Shown one piece after another: positions 8,667-39,194 of a stretch of 39,915 bases of DNA. The position numbers were made by a program, and so were the translations under genes. How positions within the stretch are numbered: the first letter of the stretch is position 1; every line of letters starts with the position of its first letter. Below the pieces are notes generated by a model. The model saw nothing but the letters and a program-made list of their open reading frames with translations. It searched no databases and was not told the DNA's origin. Origin of the DNA: Spirochaetaceae bacterium (lineage in GTDB: Bacteria; Spirochaetota; Spirochaetia; Treponematales; Breznakiellaceae); assembly GCA_031276945.1 (NCBI GenBank), contig JAISMB010000042.1, positions 1 to 39,915 on the forward strand, read 5' to 3'.

Positions 8667-9368
8667 GTGGCAAAAGCAGCGCTGCTCATTATTGAAGATG
8701 AAGCAGAGATACAGGAATTGCTTTCATTGGCAATGGTCAAGGAAGGCTGGAAACTTATCATGGCGCAAACCGCAGAAGAAGGCTTGGATCTCTTAAAACA
8801 GAGAGCGGTTGACTGCATTATTCTCGATATTATGCTGCCGGGTATGGATGGCTTTACGCTGCTCAAGAAGATCAAGACAGACCAAGACCTCCAAGTGCGG
8901 GGGATTCCGGTCATTATGACAACCGCGCGGGGAGAAGAAGCCGATATTGTTGCCGGTCTTGAACTAGGCGCTGATGACTATGTGGTCAAGCCGTATAGCC
9001 CCAAAGTGCTGATCGCACGGGTTAGGGCTGCGCTGCGCAGAAAAGAGGAAGGCGCCCCAAAATGTGCAGAGAAAACCTTCTTTCGTCAGGGTAGAATCAG
9101 TCTTAATACCCAGACTCATGCAGTTTTTCTCGATGAAAAACCCCTCGATCTCTCAGCAACAGAGTTTTCTCTGCTCAAGCATTTTCTTTCCCAGCCGGAT
9201 CGGGTTTTCTCCCGCAACCAGATCATTGATGCGCTGCACGGCTCTGATTATCCTGTAACCGACCGGTCTGTTGATGTCCAAGTACTGGCTTTACGCAAGA
9301 AACTGATGGATGGCGGCGACTGTATCGAAACTATTCGGGGCGTCGGGTATAGGTTAAAATCACTATGA
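8667..9368 (+). CDS. phoB: PhoB-like response regulator (OmpR family)
   Basis: This is the DNA-binding half of the phosphate two-component system. The receiver domain (residues 1-120) has the acidic pair at 11-12, the phosphorylated Asp54 in ILDIMLPGMDG, Thr85/86 and Lys108 in VVKPYSP. A winged-helix OmpR-type domain (about 133-233) contains the FSLLKHFLSQPDRVFSRNQI block and ends ETIRGVGYRL. The start is GTG, with GGGAG upstream. Its stop overlaps the start of phoR (ATGA). It should bind the 11-base repeats before pstS, giving positive feedback on the operon. The PhoB name rests on context; sequence alone says OmpR family. Confidence 0.9.
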   Translation: MAKAALLIIEDEAEIQELLSLAMVKEGWKLIMAQTAEEGLDLLKQRAVDCIILDIMLPGMDGFTLLKKIKTDQDLQVRGIPVIMTTARGEEADIVAGLELGADDYVVKPYSPKVLIARVRAALRRKEEGAPKCAEKTFFRQGRISLNTQTHAVFLDEKPLDLSATEFSLLKHFLSQPDRVFSRNQIIDALHGSDYPVTDRSVDVQVLALRKKLMDGGDCIETIRGVGYRLKSL

Positions 9369-11161
9369 AAACAGTTTTTCACCAGAGCTTAGGGGTACTC
9401 AGTGCGGCAGCGCTGGGGTTGTGCTGCTTCTTTACCCTTGCAATCCTTATTTTTATGAATTCGCTTTACTATGAGACAAACACGGCGAACCTGAGAGAGA
9501 CGGCGCTCCTAGTCTTATCGCTCTTAGACCCCGATCTTTTCACGGAGAGGGACCGTTCGGCTCTGCACAGACTGAGCACAGTCGGGAGCGCCTACAGGAT
9601 CAGCCTTATCAGTACCGAGGGGCAGGTGTTCTTTGATTCACAATTCGATCAGGCGGGCATGGATAACCATTTGAGCAGACCGGAAGTTGCCGCGGCGCTT
9701 GCGGGGCATGAGGGGCAGGCGATGCGCACCTCGAAGACCGCGGGGATTGACACGCTCTACCGGGCGCTTCCGGTCTTTCAGAGCGCACCCTCTCAAGAGG
9801 AGCTTATCGGGGTCTTGCGCCTCTCCCAGTCCGTGCCGTCTTTCCGCCGCCGCATCCTGAGCGCTGCTCTTCCCTATCTTTATCTGCCCCTGCTTATCAT
9901 TGCGCTTGCCATAATCGCTGTCTACCTCTTCTCACGCTCCTTGGGCAGGTCCTTCGCTCGACTTGTCGCCTTCACCAAAACTGTTTCCGCTCAGGCGTAC
10001 ACCCAGATAAGCGCCCTGCCGCCTGTGATCTCAAATACCGATGAATTCAGGGCGCTTGAAACAGCGTTGTGGGATATGGCTTCTGAGTTGACCAGACGTA
10101 TGCAGGAAATTCAGGCTGAAGGAAGACTGCTGCACGGCGTGCTGAACGGCATGAATGAGGCGGTATTTGCCGTTGATCAGAACCTCATGCTCCGCCTCGT
10201 CAATCCGCGCGCCGCAGCCTTGTTCGCCATTCCATCCGGACGGGAGATACAGAGCCTTTCCTTCCTTGAGGCGACTCATTCCACGGACTTAGAAGCTGCC
10301 GCACGTACCGCGCTTGAGGCGCTTGCCCCTTCGGAATCCGAGCTGAACCTGCCGTCCGCGGCTGCCCGGCACTGCTTTCGAGTTTTTGCCGGTCCGCTCA
10401 ATTCCGACAATGCCAAGCAGCCCAGCGGCGCTATCATTGTGCTTGAAGACATAAGCCAGCTCAAACGGCTTGAGCAGGTGCGCAAGGATTTTGTGGCGAA
10501 TGTTTCCCATGAGCTGCGCACGCCCATACAGCTTATAAAAGGTTACGCCGAGACGCTCCTTGATATGCTTCCTGAAAATGCGCAGACCGTGCGCCATGGT
10601 ATAGGCATTATTCAGAAAAATGCCCTGTCTATGGAAAATCTGACCACGGACCTGCTCACCCTTGCCATGCTTGAGGATTCGCAGGGCAGCCGCCCTCTGG
10701 CGCTGAAGCAGCCGCTCAAGCCGCTCCTTGAGGAAGCCGTTCAGACCATGACCCCCTTTGCCCGCGAGAAGGGGACGCAGCTCTCTCTTGACTGCCCGCA
10801 CGACTTGCAGGCGCCGATTTACGGCTCTCTCATTGTTCAGGCGCTGATAAATCTGCTTGACAATGCGATTAAGTACACGCCGGCACAGACGCGGGTGCAG
10901 GTGCGCGCTTTTCAGGTGAAAGAGGAGCGTTCGCTCATTATTACCGTGAGCGATTCAGGCTGCGGTATTCCTGCCGAGCATCTGGAACGGATATTTGAAC
11001 GTTTTTACCGTATTGACAAGGCGCGCAGTCGGAACGCAGGCGGCACGGGACTAGGGCTTTCCATAGTACGGCACATTGCGCTTATGCACCAAGGCAGTGT
11101 CTCAGTAGAGAGCCGCGCCGGCGAAGGCTCTGTCTTCAGCATAAAGCTGCCGGTTGCTTGA
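9365..11161 (+). CDS. phoR: PhoR-like sensor histidine kinase
   Basis: The product is a 598-residue membrane kinase. Helix 1 (about 9-33) and helix 2 (about 166-187) flank a periplasmic domain. A HAMP-like linker follows, then a PAS-type domain (about 255-365) and the dimerisation domain, with phosphorylated His382 in NVSHELRTPIQ. The ATPase domain has an N box NLLDNAIKYTP, G1 DSGCGIP, an F box and G2 GGTGLGLSIV. The extracytoplasmic domain is larger than in E. coli PhoR, resembling the Gram-positive type. The ATG overlaps the phoB stop, so the two are translationally coupled. Its partner and the Pho boxes support the role in phosphate sensing. Confidence 0.9.
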   Translation: MKTVFHQSLGVLSAAALGLCCFFTLAILIFMNSLYYETNTANLRETALLVLSLLDPDLFTERDRSALHRLSTVGSAYRISLISTEGQVFFDSQFDQAGMDNHLSRPEVAAALAGHEGQAMRTSKTAGIDTLYRALPVFQSAPSQEELIGVLRLSQSVPSFRRRILSAALPYLYLPLLIIALAIIAVYLFSRSLGRSFARLVAFTKTVSAQAYTQISALPPVISNTDEFRALETALWDMASELTRRMQEIQAEGRLLHGVLNGMNEAVFAVDQNLMLRLVNPRAAALFAIPSGREIQSLSFLEATHSTDLEAAARTALEALAPSESELNLPSAAARHCFRVFAGPLNSDNAKQPSGAIIVLEDISQLKRLEQVRKDFVANVSHELRTPIQLIKGYAETLLDMLPENAQTVRHGIGIIQKNALSMENLTTDLLTLAMLEDSQGSRPLALKQPLKPLLEEAVQTMTPFAREKGTQLSLDCPHDLQAPIYGSLIVQALINLLDNAIKYTPAQTRVQVRAFQVKEERSLIITVSDSGCGIPAEHLERIFERFYRIDKARSRNAGGTGLGLSIVRHIALMHQGSVSVESRAGEGSVFSIKLPVA

Positions 11162-11170
11162 GCGAAAACC

Positions 11171-11190
11171 GCTTGACAATGCGATTAAGT
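11171..11190 (+). repeat. 20-base duplication of a phoR segment
   Basis: GCTTGACAATGCGATTAAGT is identical to 10855-10874, the part of phoR that encodes the kinase N box (LDNAIK). The second copy starts ten bases after the phoR stop. It may be the remains of a tandem duplication of the kinase end. Confidence 0.6.
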
Positions 11191-11348
11191 GCAGTCTGAA
11201 TCCAGTCTTCGCGCTGTCGGACAGAATAAGTATCCCAATCTCGCTTAAATCGGCTCAATTCCGCTCCTTAACGGGGAGCCGGTCTTGGTTTGTTATGATT
11301 TTATCTCCCGTTCCGGTACATATCAACCGCACGCAATCCCGCCGCGCT

Positions 11349-11537
11349 AAAATTTATGACTATTATAGCAAAATTTACGATACTCACGCTAAAATTTACG
11401 ACTATTATGGCAAAATTTACGATACTCACGCCAAAATTTATGGCAACTATGGCAAAATTTACGATACTCACGCTAAAATTTACGGCAATTATGGCAAAAT
11501 TTACGATACTCACGCTAAAATTTACGGCAACCGTGCC
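11349..11537 (+). repeat. Nine 21-base tandem repeats with phased AAAATTT tracts
   Basis: Nine units of exactly 21 bases each begin AAAATTTA. Two unit types alternate: even units read AAAATTTACGATACTCACGC plus T or C, and odd units vary after AAAATTTA (for example CGACTATTATGGC or CGGCAATTATGGC), giving a 42-base higher order. On the plus strand one frame reads KIYDTHA/KIYGNYG heptads; other frames on both strands are also open because the unit has no stop and is a multiple of three. A TTG-started frame (11154-11627) covers it, but no ribosome binding site supports it. AAAATTT every 21 bases, two helical turns, predicts intrinsic DNA curvature. Confidence 0.85.
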
Positions 11538-11634
11538 GTGGATTACGGAAACGCCGTTATGGTGCGTAACCCGCCCCGCGTGCGTGTAGAGCGGAGTTAT
11601 GCGACATTGGGACAAAATATATTATAAAATAATA

Positions 11635-12771: not shown

Positions 12772-13070
12772 CAGAGCAGTCTTGAGCGCACTATAGTCTT
12801 GCTTTTCTCTCTGTCTTTGATTACTATAGTTAAGAAAAGTTTTTTAATATTTCCTATAAAATATCGATAATAATACTATATTATGACAATAAGCCTCAAA
12901 ATAGTCCGAGATGGTTTGATAAAAGACCAGAGGTAAACCTTTGGTGAATGTTCTTTGACATACTAAGGGAAGAAAGGAAAGCTGCAAGATACGTCTTGTA
13001 TAAGAGTTTTATACGTCTTTTTATTAAAAGACAGTCAATTTTAATTTTTATTATCCGGAGGGATAAAAGT

Positions 13071-14036
13071 ATGAATAATGAAAAAGCAAATATTGGACTT
13101 TTCTTTGATGGATACTTTTTTTATAAACTGTATAAGTATTTTTTCATTGAAAAAAGACTAGCCTTCAATTTTGAACAATTTAATGAATTTATTAAACAGG
13201 AAGTGCAGCATCAGTTTGATATAGTACCCTCTCAATGTGATGAAATCAATCCAAACAATATTCATCTTTTCATTGGCGGTGACGGCACCTCAGAAACAGA
13301 ACCAGAAAAGCAGCTTAAACGCTCGCTTACAGCTTTAAGAATACAGCTTCACAATTCGCCTTTGCAGATTAGGAATGATACTGAGTCTTTTCTGCAAGAA
13401 AAAGGTGTTGATGTCTCTCTTACCATAAGAGCGGTAGAAGATGCGTTGGATAAAAAATATAATACTCTCGTGCTAATAACCGGTGACGCTGATTTTGTGC
13501 CGCTTGTTAATTGGAGCAAGCAACGTAATATTAACGTTCTTGGCGTCTATTGGAGTAATAGTGATACAAATACTAAAGCAAGCCAAGATTTTATTGATAG
13601 TCTTACCGGAAAAGTTGATCTTTTGTCTCGGCTTGAAGACAAAAGTAATCGTTTAATTAAGGTTTTATTTGATGAAATAGCGATAAGTGACGAAAATATG
13701 TCAACGATACCTGCTTCCAAAATAGCGGCATGGAGGTTTTCCGGTGAAAGACCGCCGCAAACATTGACGCAAAAGCAGTTGGATGAGGTGCGCGAATCCG
13801 TCATTCTCAACCTAAATCATCAATATGGGTCTGGTTTCATTAGAAGTGAGCAATTTTATCCTGACAATAAAAAGTGGAACAACTATAGATTCTCACTGAG
13901 CGATGTAGAAGGCAGAAAAGCAGATGAAGTTGCCGCAGGCATGAGGGTACAGTTTAACCTTGAATATGACGGTCCTCGTTCTGCAAAAGAAGGTGTAACT
14001 TTGTACCGAGCCACGAATGTCATAATAATAGATTAG
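13071..14036 (+). CDS. NYN (PIN-like) nuclease-type protein with a C-terminal cold-shock-like domain
   Basis: The N-terminal part (residues about 7-185) has the NYN/LabA pattern: an acidic residue in GLFFDGYFFY (Asp13), an acidic ED pair at 123-124, TGDADFVPLVNW (Asp139, Asp141) and NVLGVYW. These residues would build the metal site of a PIN-like RNase. The C-terminal part (about 245-321) contains GSGFIRSEQFYPDN, a Tyr/Phe pair in NYRFSLSDVEG and GMRVQFNLEYDG, resembling an OB-fold cold-shock domain that binds RNA. It is therefore probably an RNA-processing or RNA-degrading protein; the target is unknown. I chose ATG 13071, preceded by CCGGAGGG, over an upstream in-frame ATG that adds 41 residues. 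It is AT-rich and flanked by thiI scraps, so probably acquired. Confidence 0.7.
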   Translation: MNNEKANIGLFFDGYFFYKLYKYFFIEKRLAFNFEQFNEFIKQEVQHQFDIVPSQCDEINPNNIHLFIGGDGTSETEPEKQLKRSLTALRIQLHNSPLQIRNDTESFLQEKGVDVSLTIRAVEDALDKKYNTLVLITGDADFVPLVNWSKQRNINVLGVYWSNSDTNTKASQDFIDSLTGKVDLLSRLEDKSNRLIKVLFDEIAISDENMSTIPASKIAAWRFSGERPPQTLTQKQLDEVRESVILNLNHQYGSGFIRSEQFYPDNKKWNNYRFSLSDVEGRKADEVAAGMRVQFNLEYDGPRSAKEGVTLYRATNVIIID

Positions 14037-23206: not shown

Positions 23207-23323
23207 GATCTGACCTATTTTGACGGTAAGGTCTGACCTACTACCGCAGGACTGACCTACTACCGCAGGACTGGTCAATTCCATGGCATAATGAGCTCAT
23301 TTTACGGGGAGAGGTCTGACTTA
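23207..23323. repeat. REP-like repeat array next to IS5 copy B
   Basis: There are four units in a row, roughly 20 bases apart: AGATCTGACCTA (23207), AGGTCTGACCTA (23229), AGGACTGACCTA (23248) and AGGACTGGTCA (23268). The last three are separated by CTACCGC-type spacers. A fifth, GAGGTCTGACTTA, at 23311-23323 touches the IS5 end. TTTTGACGGT before the second unit recalls the spacers in the 19.2 and 34.0 kb copies. Confidence 0.8.
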
Positions 23324-23324
23324 A

Positions 23325-23894
23325 GGGTGTCGTCAAAAAGTGAGGAAATAAAGTAAGATAACAAGATGAAAGAAAACGGAAAAGCACTGCACAGACACGA
23401 CATCAGTGATAACCTGTGGAAAAAGATAAAAGACTTACTACCAGGAGGGGGCAGGTAAACAGGGTCGAATGGCTCATGACAATCGACGCTTTATCAACGC
23501 TGTATCTTGGATTATCAGAACCGGCGTTCCAGACAGAGATTTACCACCTGAATACGGCGACTGGAAAAATACATACTACAGATTTTGCCGCTGGCGGGAT
23601 AGAGATGTCTGGAAAACAATAGCCGCTGAAGTTATCGGGGAAGTGGATACCACGTGGCTTATGATAGATGTAACTTATAGCAAAGTCCATGCAGACGGAT
23701 GTGGAGCGGTTGGAGGAAATCAAGCAATAGGGCGTACAAAAGGGGGATCAATACCAAAGTCCACCTTGCTATAGATTAAGAAAGGAAAACCAGTACGTAT
23801 CATAGTTTCCGCGGGGCAGGAAGCGGATTGCACCTATGCACCGCCCTTCTGATCTCTATCTCAGATCTATCTCCCTCTCCTTTTGACGACACCC
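23325..23894 (+). mobile_element. IS5-family insertion sequence, copy B (internally deleted)
   Basis: GGGTGTCGTC at the left and GACGACACCC at the right bound about 570 bases. The left 40 bases match the outer end of copy A, base for base apart from small indels. A large part of the 3' half is missing relative to copy A. REP-like repeats flank it on both sides. Confidence 0.82.
23366..23774 (+). pseudogene. IS5-family transposase remnant (copy B)
   Basis: The start is MKENGKALHRHDISDNLWKK as in copy A, but one extra base in a G-run shifts the frame after LLPG. The frame from 23469 gives DNRRFINAVSWIIRTGVPDR, the DLPPEYGDWKNTYYRFCRW block that copy A has partly lost, and the first catalytic Asp in LMIDVTYSK. 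A TAG ends it at 23774, where copy A reads a Leu-Lys codon pair. The second Asp and the Glu are absent, so it cannot be functional. Confidence 0.82.
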
Positions 23895-23920: not shown

Positions 23921-23973
23921 AGGTCTGTCCTATCCTTCCTTTGAGGTCTGACCGTTCCTTTGAGGTCTGACCG
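23921..23973. repeat. REP-like repeats after IS5 copy B
   Basis: The units are AGGTCTGTCCTA at 23921 and GAGGTCTGACCG at 23943 and 23962; the latter two are a 19-base tandem with TTCCTT between them. Together with 23207-23323 they enclose the IS5 copy. Confidence 0.8.
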
Positions 23974-24064
23974 TGCATATCCGCAGGTTATTGTCTAAAG
24001 ACAGCGGGGCATTATCCTTAACAAAGCAGGTCAAAGGGCATGTTTTGAAGATTGAAAGAAATTG

Positions 24065-38465: not shown

Positions 38466-38510
38466 GGTCTGACCTATCTTGTTCACAGAAGCAGCTTGAG
38501 GTCTGTCCTC
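38464..38510. repeat. REP-like repeat pair at the 3' ends of parC and the RAYT gene
   Basis: GAGGTCTGACCTA (38464-38476) and GAGGTCTGTCCTC (38498-38510) lie 34 bases apart. The first touches the parC stop; the second encodes residues 168-171 of the transposase on the minus strand. Confidence 0.85.
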
Positions 38511-39007
38511 CAAGCTGTCTCAGTTACCAGAGAGACAATCTTTGTAATCCCCTGTTCTCGATGGTATGCACCGCTGTACCGCCATGTTTCAGGCTTTTTC
38601 ACTAGTCCTGCTGCGACAGGGTTTCGGTCTATGTACTCAAACACAGTCCAAAAGTCTTTCTTGTCTCTGATCTCGCGTGAGAAAAACCTATCTCCCCAGA
38701 AATGACCGGTCTTATTATGCTTTTTATTCCACCGTATGGCAAAAACCATCTTAATCCACTTCATTATACTGGACAGACTTTCCCCTTTTTCAGGTGTAAT
38801 GAGAAAATGGAAATGGTTACCCATGATGCAGAAGTTCCACAGCTTAAACTTGAAACCTTTAGAAGTTTTAGCTTCTTCAATCACGGTAAGAAAGAGTTCT
38901 TTCATCTTATCCGGCTCTAATTCAAAAGCGTCTCGATTTACTTTTGAAGTAACGTGGTAGGTCAGACCTTGGTCTGTACACCCCCGTAAATTGTGATGAT
39001 ACGACAT
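38483..39007 (-). CDS. REP-associated tyrosine transposase (RAYT, Y1_Tnp/IS200-like)
   Basis: The 174-residue protein belongs to the Y1/HUH transposase superfamily. GLTYHVTSKVNR at 14-25 is the typical first strand, and GNHFHFLITPE holds the HUH pair His65 and His67. The RAYT landmarks FWGDRFFSREI near 103 and FEYIDRNPVAAGLVKKPETW at 123-142 follow. In many relatives a Tyr precedes the N-K block (YxxxxN); the equivalent here appears to be Phe89 in MVFAIRWNKKHN, so nucleophile loss is possible. The last ten or so residues are encoded by a repeat copy and differ from the left-edge copy. No clear ribosome binding site precedes the ATG. RAYTs process and spread REP sequences, and this gene has repeat copies at both ends. 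Confidence 0.85.
   Translation of the reverse strand: MSYHHNLRGCTDQGLTYHVTSKVNRDAFELEPDKMKELFLTVIEEAKTSKGFKFKLWNFCIMGNHFHFLITPEKGESLSSIMKWIKMVFAIRWNKKHNKTGHFWGDRFFSREIRDKKDFWTVFEYIDRNPVAAGLVKKPETWRYSGAYHREQGITKIVSLVTETAWRTDLKLLL
38958..38979. repeat. REP-like repeat inside the 5' end of the RAYT gene
   Basis: TAGGTCAGACCT (38958-38969) followed by TTGGTCTGTAC lies within codons 10-17 of the transposase. It is inverted relative to the copy at 38464-38476, so the gene is bracketed by inverted repeats. Confidence 0.7.
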
Positions 39008-39073
39008 ACCCTTTATAAGGGCGAAACTGTGGATTTTGCTTTAATTTTGGCAGTATTTTCTTATTTTTTTTCT

Positions 39074-39194
39074 GAGGTCTGTCCCTTCAAGGTCTGTCCC
39101 TGTCCCCTTGAGGTCTGTCCCTTCAAGGTCTGTCCCTGTCCCCTTGTCCCTGTCCCCTTCCCCTTGTCCCTTCAAGGTCTGTCCCTGTCCCCTT
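39074..39194. repeat. Tandem REP-like block upstream of the RAYT gene
   Basis: Five AGGTCTGTCC copies occur within 121 bases (39074, 39089, 39110, 39125, 39174). The first four form an exact 36-base dimer repeated twice: GAGGTCTGTCCCTTC plus AAGGTCTGTCCCTG plus TCCCCTT. The rest is a decayed mix of CCCTTGTCCCTGTCC units. It lies 66 bases before the RAYT start and 12 bases from the end of the next gene on the minus strand. No gene lies in 39008-39206. Confidence 0.85.

What the first reader, a model, noticed from the sequence alone, without database searches (positions are those of the whole stretch)
11349..11537. Helically phased AAAATTT tracts: a predicted DNA bend
Nine AAAATTT tracts recur every 21 bases, that is every two turns. 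Tracts of the A4T3 type without a TpA step are known to bend DNA, and in-phase copies add up. The block lies between the phosphate operon and the AT-rich accessory genes, so it may be a binding site for a nucleoid protein, a chromosomal boundary or a recombination hot spot.
Basis: partly seen in the sequence, partly recalled or inferred. Interest (0 to 1): 0.6.

Follow-up and report, generated by a model that had tools for sequence, protein, structure and literature searches.

The report
21-bp intergenic satellite array in Treponema
The nine evenly spaced AAAATTT tracts are real and would probably bend DNA, but they are one of hundreds of short intergenic tandem-repeat arrays in this termite-gut spirochaete, which share a repeat length of 21 or 23 bases and not a sequence, so the length, not the bend, is what needs explaining.

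Summary
In detail: nine AAAATTT tracts lie exactly 21 bp apart (11349-11537), organised as 42-bp dimers. Two wedge models make this the most curved 189 bp of the window. The array is one of three dispersed copies in its own genome that share flanking DNA, and it belongs to a genome-wide class. In sampled DNA of this probably termite-gut Treponema and several relatives there are about 150-320 tandem arrays per Mb, up to 10% of the sequence. Where a base period can be read it is mostly 21 or 23 bp (70 and 35 arrays, against 10 at 22 bp and none at 20 or 24), with unrelated unit sequences, and nearly all arrays lie between genes. Most 21-bp arrays are only mildly curved and 23-bp arrays are straighter than background, so phased bending is not the shared property. 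This matches the enigmatic 'constant size, variable sequence' bacterial satellites of Subirana & Messeguer (20-23 nt). Best account: a non-coding intergenic satellite that grows in whole units, with the bend a by-product. A wobble-position signal (p = 0.003) leaves a decayed or live heptad-repeat peptide possible. What fixes the period is unknown.

The parts
11349..11537 (+). Array of nine 21-bp units, each beginning AAAATTTA (invariant in 22 of 22 units of the three genomic copies)
11345..11530 (+). The same array as a 42-bp higher-order repeat, 4.4 copies, 93% match: growth by dimers
11203..11348 (+). Left flank shared with a second copy on another contig (C139, 78% over 168 aligned columns; runs of about 40 identical bases)
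11539..11588 (+). Right flank shared with a third copy (C43, 90%) and, for 34 bp, with C139 (88%)
11154..11627 (+). Open frame of 157 codons reading the units as KIYDTHA/KIYGNYG heptads; TTG start overlaps the end of phoR; no family match; not shown to be a gene
11301..11615 (-). Antisense open frame of 104 codons (VNFSVSI heptads); no family match; probably a consequence of the stop-free unit
9365..11161 (+). PhoR/PnpS-like phosphate sensor kinase, upstream neighbour
12948..14036 (+). NYN-domain protein, next well-supported gene downstream

Best explanation
The block is a short non-coding satellite in the intergenic region downstream of phoR, one of hundreds of 21- or 23-bp-period tandem arrays scattered between genes in this Treponema lineage. 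Shown: exact 21-bp unit, three dispersed copies with shared flanks, different higher-order units in two copies (42 bp here, 63 bp in C139), a genome-wide class with fixed period and unrelated sequences, and intergenic location. Inferred: arrays grow and shrink by slippage or unequal recombination in whole units, so an existing array keeps its period, and a piece of array with its flank is occasionally copied to a new intergenic site. Why new arrays start at 21 or 23 bp is not explained; a protein footprint or a replication/repair step that sets the unit length is my guess at the cause. The strong predicted bend follows from having an A-tract in a unit two helix turns long, and is probably incidental.
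For: Tandem-repeat census: own genome 76 arrays in 486 kb (156/Mb, 2.6% of bases), same-genus G001 95 in 294 kb (323/Mb, 9.8%), complete same-family genome G030 3 in 400 kb (7.5/Mb, none at 21-23). Base periods over nine genomes: 21 (70), 23 (35), 22 (10), 20 and 24 (0), all others 15. 25 unrelated unit families in the 486-kb G000 sample and 26 in the 294-kb G001 sample. None of 48 period-21 arrays in G000 and G001 lies in a gene, while 81-83% of the other DNA does. Sister copies with shared flanks. The C139 63-bp trimer repeats a TAA in the heptad frame three times, so it was amplified without selection on that frame. No significant pN/pS constraint (permutation p 0.28), no RNA structure, no protein family. 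Literature class: PMC8161180.
Against: The 8-bp AAAATTTA core is invariant in all 22 units while 12 of the other 13 positions vary, which could be DNA-level selection; other arrays also show invariant runs of 8-10 bp, so it is not unusual. Variable third positions of the KIYDTHA frame are almost only C/T (p = 0.003; 0 of 15 other arrays show this), a coding-like signal. No orthologous empty site was found. Genomes are draft assemblies, and 42 of 107 arrays tested lie at contig ends.
Confidence: 0.68

Rival explanations
1. Functional DNA bend: the phased A4T3 tracts are kept to curve DNA for a nucleoid-associated protein or a domain boundary after the phosphate operon.
For: Most curved 189 bp of the window in two models, 0 of 300 shuffles as curved. 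AAAATTTA invariant in 22 of 22 units, including wobble positions that a protein would leave free. Lies at a GC step.
Against: Other arrays of the class lack A-tracts and are mostly only mildly curved; 23-bp arrays are straighter than background. The two related copies sit in other gene contexts. Invariant runs of 8-10 bp also occur in other arrays. Curvature parameters were entered from memory.
Confidence: 0.1
2. Translated heptad repeats: the array encodes, or until recently encoded, a small KIYDTHA/KIYGNYG repeat protein in the 157-codon frame.
For: Frame open for 474 bases; variable third positions are almost purely pyrimidine (p = 0.003; none of 15 other arrays); lowest pN/pS of six frames (0.38). 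Subirana & Messeguer name a 21-nt family that encodes seven-residue repeats in Bacillus.
Against: pN/pS permutation p = 0.28. C139 has TAA in units 3, 6 and 9 and no usual start codon between its upstream stop and the array; C43 has stops on both sides. No well-spaced ribosome-binding site seen before the internal ATG; no Pfam, NCBIfam or PDB relative. Wobble positions in AAA ATT never vary.
Confidence: 0.15
3. REP/RAYT-type repeat: the arrays are spread by the multi-copy RAYT (Y1_Tnp) family of this genome.
For: 97 Y1_Tnp matches in the own genome, 78-96% identical among 16 compared; GGTCWGWC motif 3.3 times denser around them. A subset of arrays carries CAGACCTC units.
Against: This array has no such motif and no dyad above shuffles. 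Arrays are not near RAYT genes (3 within 1 kb, 6.1 expected). G012 and G006 have many arrays with 1 and 6 RAYT matches.
Confidence: 0.05

Closest known systems
Constant-size, variable-sequence bacterial tandem repeats of 20-23 nt (Subirana & Messeguer, PMC8161180; their J Bacteriol 2020 e00229-20 known to me only through citation and memory)
   Same: Unit 21 bp, many sequence families in one genome, unrelated sequences between relatives, mostly non-coding, scattered between genes, function unknown.
   Different: Here a spirochaete lineage, very dense (up to 10% of sampled DNA), with two preferred lengths, 21 and 23, and few at 22. The species-wide short motif reported for Bacillus was found only as CAGACCTC in a subset and not in this array.
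Leptospira interrogans satellites (Subirana & Messeguer 2019, PMC6749651)
   Same: Spirochaete, non-coding satellite families dispersed through the chromosome.
   Different: Leptospira families have 37-, 46- and 69-nt units and no short repeats.
Phased A-tract curved DNA (AnTn tracts; general knowledge)
   Same: A4T3 tracts without an internal TpA step at a multiple of the helical repeat; strong predicted curvature.
   Different: Tracts occur every two turns, not every turn; the wider array class is mostly not curved; no binding protein known.
REP/BIME repeats with RAYT
   Same: Short intergenic repeats in clusters, and the genome carries many RAYT genes.
   Different: No palindrome above chance, no RAYT-linked motif, head-to-tail array.

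Membership tests
20-23 nt constant-size bacterial satellites | Head-to-tail tandem repeats of constant unit length 20-23 nt | tested here: met
   21-bp unit, nine copies; class periods 21 and 23
20-23 nt constant-size bacterial satellites | Several families per genome, same length, unrelated sequence | tested here: met
   25 and 26 non-redundant unit families in G000 and G001 samples
[quoted passage not shown]
   Met for the class (0 of 48 period-21 arrays in genes); for this array the heptad frame is open with a wobble signal, while the sister array has stops
20-23 nt constant-size bacterial satellites | Short characteristic sequence shared by most arrays of a species (reported for Bacillus species; an accompanying, not a defining, feature) | tested here: not met
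   Only a CAGACCTC subset is enriched; this array lacks it
Intrinsically bent phased A-tract DNA | A/T tracts without internal TpA, in phase with the helix | tested here: met
   AAAATTT every 21 bp
Intrinsically bent phased A-tract DNA | Predicted curvature far above background | tested here: met
   0 of 300 shuffles, 1 of 795 windows (parameters from memory)
Intrinsically bent phased A-tract DNA | Anomalous gel mobility or protein binding | not testable with these tools
   needs bench work
REP/RAYT repeats | Palindromic unit and linkage to a RAYT motif or gene | tested here: not met
   stem p = 0.37; no GGTCWGWC motif and nearest RAYT domain 27 kb away
Protein-coding heptad repeat | Frame conserved between copies | tested here: not met
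   C139 KIY frame has TAA in three units

The most novel reading that the evidence does not exclude
This Treponema lineage has an active process with a molecular ruler of 21 or 23 bp (but rarely 22) that turns unrelated intergenic sequences into tandem arrays covering up to a tenth of the genome. Because 23 bp is not a whole number of helix turns, the ruler would not be helical phasing but a fixed-length product or footprint of an unidentified enzyme.
Probability: 0.25. Interest if true: 0.8.

Novelty: new member of a known kind. Interest (0 to 1): 0.42.

Why it matters
Constant-length, sequence-free satellites are an unexplained feature of some bacterial genomes. A lineage with hundreds of them, with two discrete lengths of which one is not helically phased, argues against the 'two turns of the helix' idea and makes the origin of the fixed length testable by comparing close species with long reads. 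For the single array the practical message is to treat the bend as probably incidental until tested.

Tried and rejected
Shared dyad symmetry of units: only a slight excess (12.9% of arrays at p < 0.05; this array p 0.37). Stable RNA: no (z -0.2 and -1.3); Rfam: no match in the window. Link to RAYT genes in cis: no, slightly fewer than expected. Codon constraint by pN/pS: not significant; the wobble test was made after seeing the pattern and is suggestive only. Conserved promoter in the left flank: the minus-strand TTGATA/TAAAAT pair is not kept, because C139 has a 23-bp insertion there. Relatives in phages, plasmids and viral contigs: none. Same locus in relatives: no close phoR orthologue in the genus; the DNA held after phoR in five Treponema MAG loci with about 51% identical PhoR has no matching array (L057 has an unrelated 21-bp array about 1 kb further on); conserved gene pairs gave no informative site. 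A species-wide short motif: only CAGACCTC in a subset. Orientation of flanking genes: no clear preference.

Full report
OBSERVATION. The window has nine AAAATTT tracts exactly 21 bp apart from 11349 to 11523, in nine 21-bp units that end at 11537. TRF gives the best account as a 42-bp unit with 4.4 copies at 93%, so the array grew by dimers. The array starts 187 bp after the stop of a PhoR/PnpS-like kinase that closes a pst-phoU-phoB-phoR cluster, at a drop in GC content.

SOURCE. The window is contig C73 of a 2.18-Mb, 152-contig assembly (82% complete). The best named relatives of its PhoR are Treponema MAGs JAITRH010000145 (Roe453_bin17), JAIRLU010000070 and others at about 51% identity.

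COPIES IN THE SAME GENOME. Two more copies exist: C139 (11 units with AAAATTTA, then degenerate units, near the start of that contig) and C43 (two units plus degenerate ones, near the end of that contig). The flanks are shared too: the left flank 11203-11348 with C139 at 78% including runs of about 40 identical bases, the right flank 11539-11588 with C43 at 90%, and C139 with C43 over 172 bp at 94% up to both contig ends. So a segment of array plus flank has been copied to three intergenic places. C139 is built of 63-bp trimers, C73 of 42-bp dimers, so the arrays were re-expanded separately after copying. No relative was found in phage, plasmid or viral collections.

THE CLASS. A protein search with the heptads hit many loci in relatives, and inspection showed that these were unrelated sequences sharing only a 21-bp period. 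I therefore took stretches without regard to repeats and ran TRF (score 80 or more). Arrays per Mb: own genome 156 (2.6% of bases), G001 323 (9.8%), G003 176, G006 178, G012 164, G013 67, G009 60, G002 20, and complete genome G030 7.5. G001, G003, G006 and G012 had been flagged by the earlier search, so their densities may be biased upward; samples are small (45-135 kb) for all but G000, G001 and G030. By autocorrelation, arrays with a clear base period gave 21 bp 70 times, 23 bp 35 times, 22 bp 10 times, 20 and 24 bp never, and other lengths 15 times; 86 further arrays had no clear short period. Units fall into 25 unrelated families in the G000 sample and 26 in G001. In an ORF-based gene map, 0 of 48 period-21 arrays of G000 and G001 lie in genes while 81-83% of other DNA does. 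They are intergenic satellites.

IS IT THE BEND? A wedge-model path for the array gives an end-to-end/contour ratio of 0.31 (Bolshoy) or 0.51 (De Santis), against shuffle means of 0.90 and 0.93, with no shuffle of 300 as curved; it is the most curved 189-bp stretch of the window (parameter sets entered from memory, phased A-tract controls came out curved as expected). Across 45 period-21 arrays the median is 0.84 or 0.93 against a background of 0.95 or 0.96, and 17 period-23 arrays have 0.97 or 0.99. Any unit two turns long adds up its own bend, while 23-bp units cannot. Curvature is therefore a by-product of unit length and A-tract content, not the property that the class shares. The AAAATTTA core is invariant in 22 of 22 units, which keeps a DNA-level role possible; invariant runs as long occur in other arrays.

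IS IT CODING? The heptad frame is open for 157 codons. Its variable third positions are almost only C or T; a permutation test gives p = 0.003, and none of 15 other arrays shows this. The test was designed after seeing the pattern. Against it: pN/pS is not significantly low (0.38, p = 0.28); C139 has TAA in units 3, 6 and 9, a stop amplified with its trimer; C43 has stops on both sides; there is no family or structure match. A past coding origin of this one family is possible; present translation is unproven.

OTHER READINGS. Dyad symmetry is only slightly enriched over the class and not in this array. RNA folding is ordinary and Rfam is silent. The genome holds 97 Y1_Tnp (RAYT-like) matches; 16 compared are 78-96% identical, with a GGTCWGWC motif 3.3 times denser around them. 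One subset of arrays carries that motif, but arrays are not placed near RAYT genes, and G006 and G012 have many arrays with few RAYTs. RAYTs do not explain this array.

KNOWN KIND. Subirana and Messeguer describe satellites of constant size and variable sequence: 20-21 nt or 52 nt in Bacillus, 20-23 nt in individual species of many groups, mostly non-coding, several families per species, function unknown, with the remark that 20-21 nt is two helix turns (PMC8161180); Leptospira has longer-unit families (PMC6749651). The array here fits the 20-23 nt class. What my data add is a spirochaete lineage with very high density, and a second preferred length of 23 bp with few arrays at 22, which is hard to reconcile with helical phasing as the reason for the fixed length.

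MECHANISM. Shown: fixed unit, whole-unit higher-order repeats, copying with flanks, intergenic location. Inferred: growth by slippage or unequal recombination in whole units. Unknown: what sets 21 or 23 bp when an array starts.

LIMITS. Draft metagenome-type assemblies, gene map by ORF length, partial sampling, no orthologous empty site, no expression data.

Noticed in passing
window 38483-39007 (-) and whole genome G000: 97 Y1_Tnp (RAYT/IS200-like) matches in a 2.18-Mb genome, nearly all open frames and 78-96% identical among 16 compared; same-genus genomes have at least 33 each. RAYTs are usually thought of as single-copy, so this looks like a strongly multiplied family.
   Followed up: partly
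window 39073-39194, 23229-23273, 23936-23974: GGTCTGTCC / GGTCTGACC-type repeat blocks; the motif is denser around the RAYT genes and is found in a subset of the 21-23-bp arrays elsewhere in the genome.
   Followed up: partly
window 11145-11258 (-): Minus-strand frame LSRFKRDWDTYSVRQREDWIQ with an AAGGAG-type site before a TTG, running antisense into the phoR end; its first 18 residues recur in the left flank of C139 (89%).
   Followed up: partly
L031 1699-2598, L099 10397-11823 and other G001 loci: In the same-genus genome G001 nearly 10% of sampled DNA is tandem repeat, with arrays of different unit families abutting each other (for example L099 10397-11823).
   Followed up: partly
window 23469-23774: DUF4096 (IS4/5-type transposase) fragment between two GGTCTGACC-type repeats.
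   Followed up: no
L169 19359-19623 and 4566-4868 (genome G006): 21-bp arrays in a related genome with low pN/pS in one frame (0.04, permutation p 0.025; and 0.15, p 0.07): a possible coding array of a different family.
   Followed up: no
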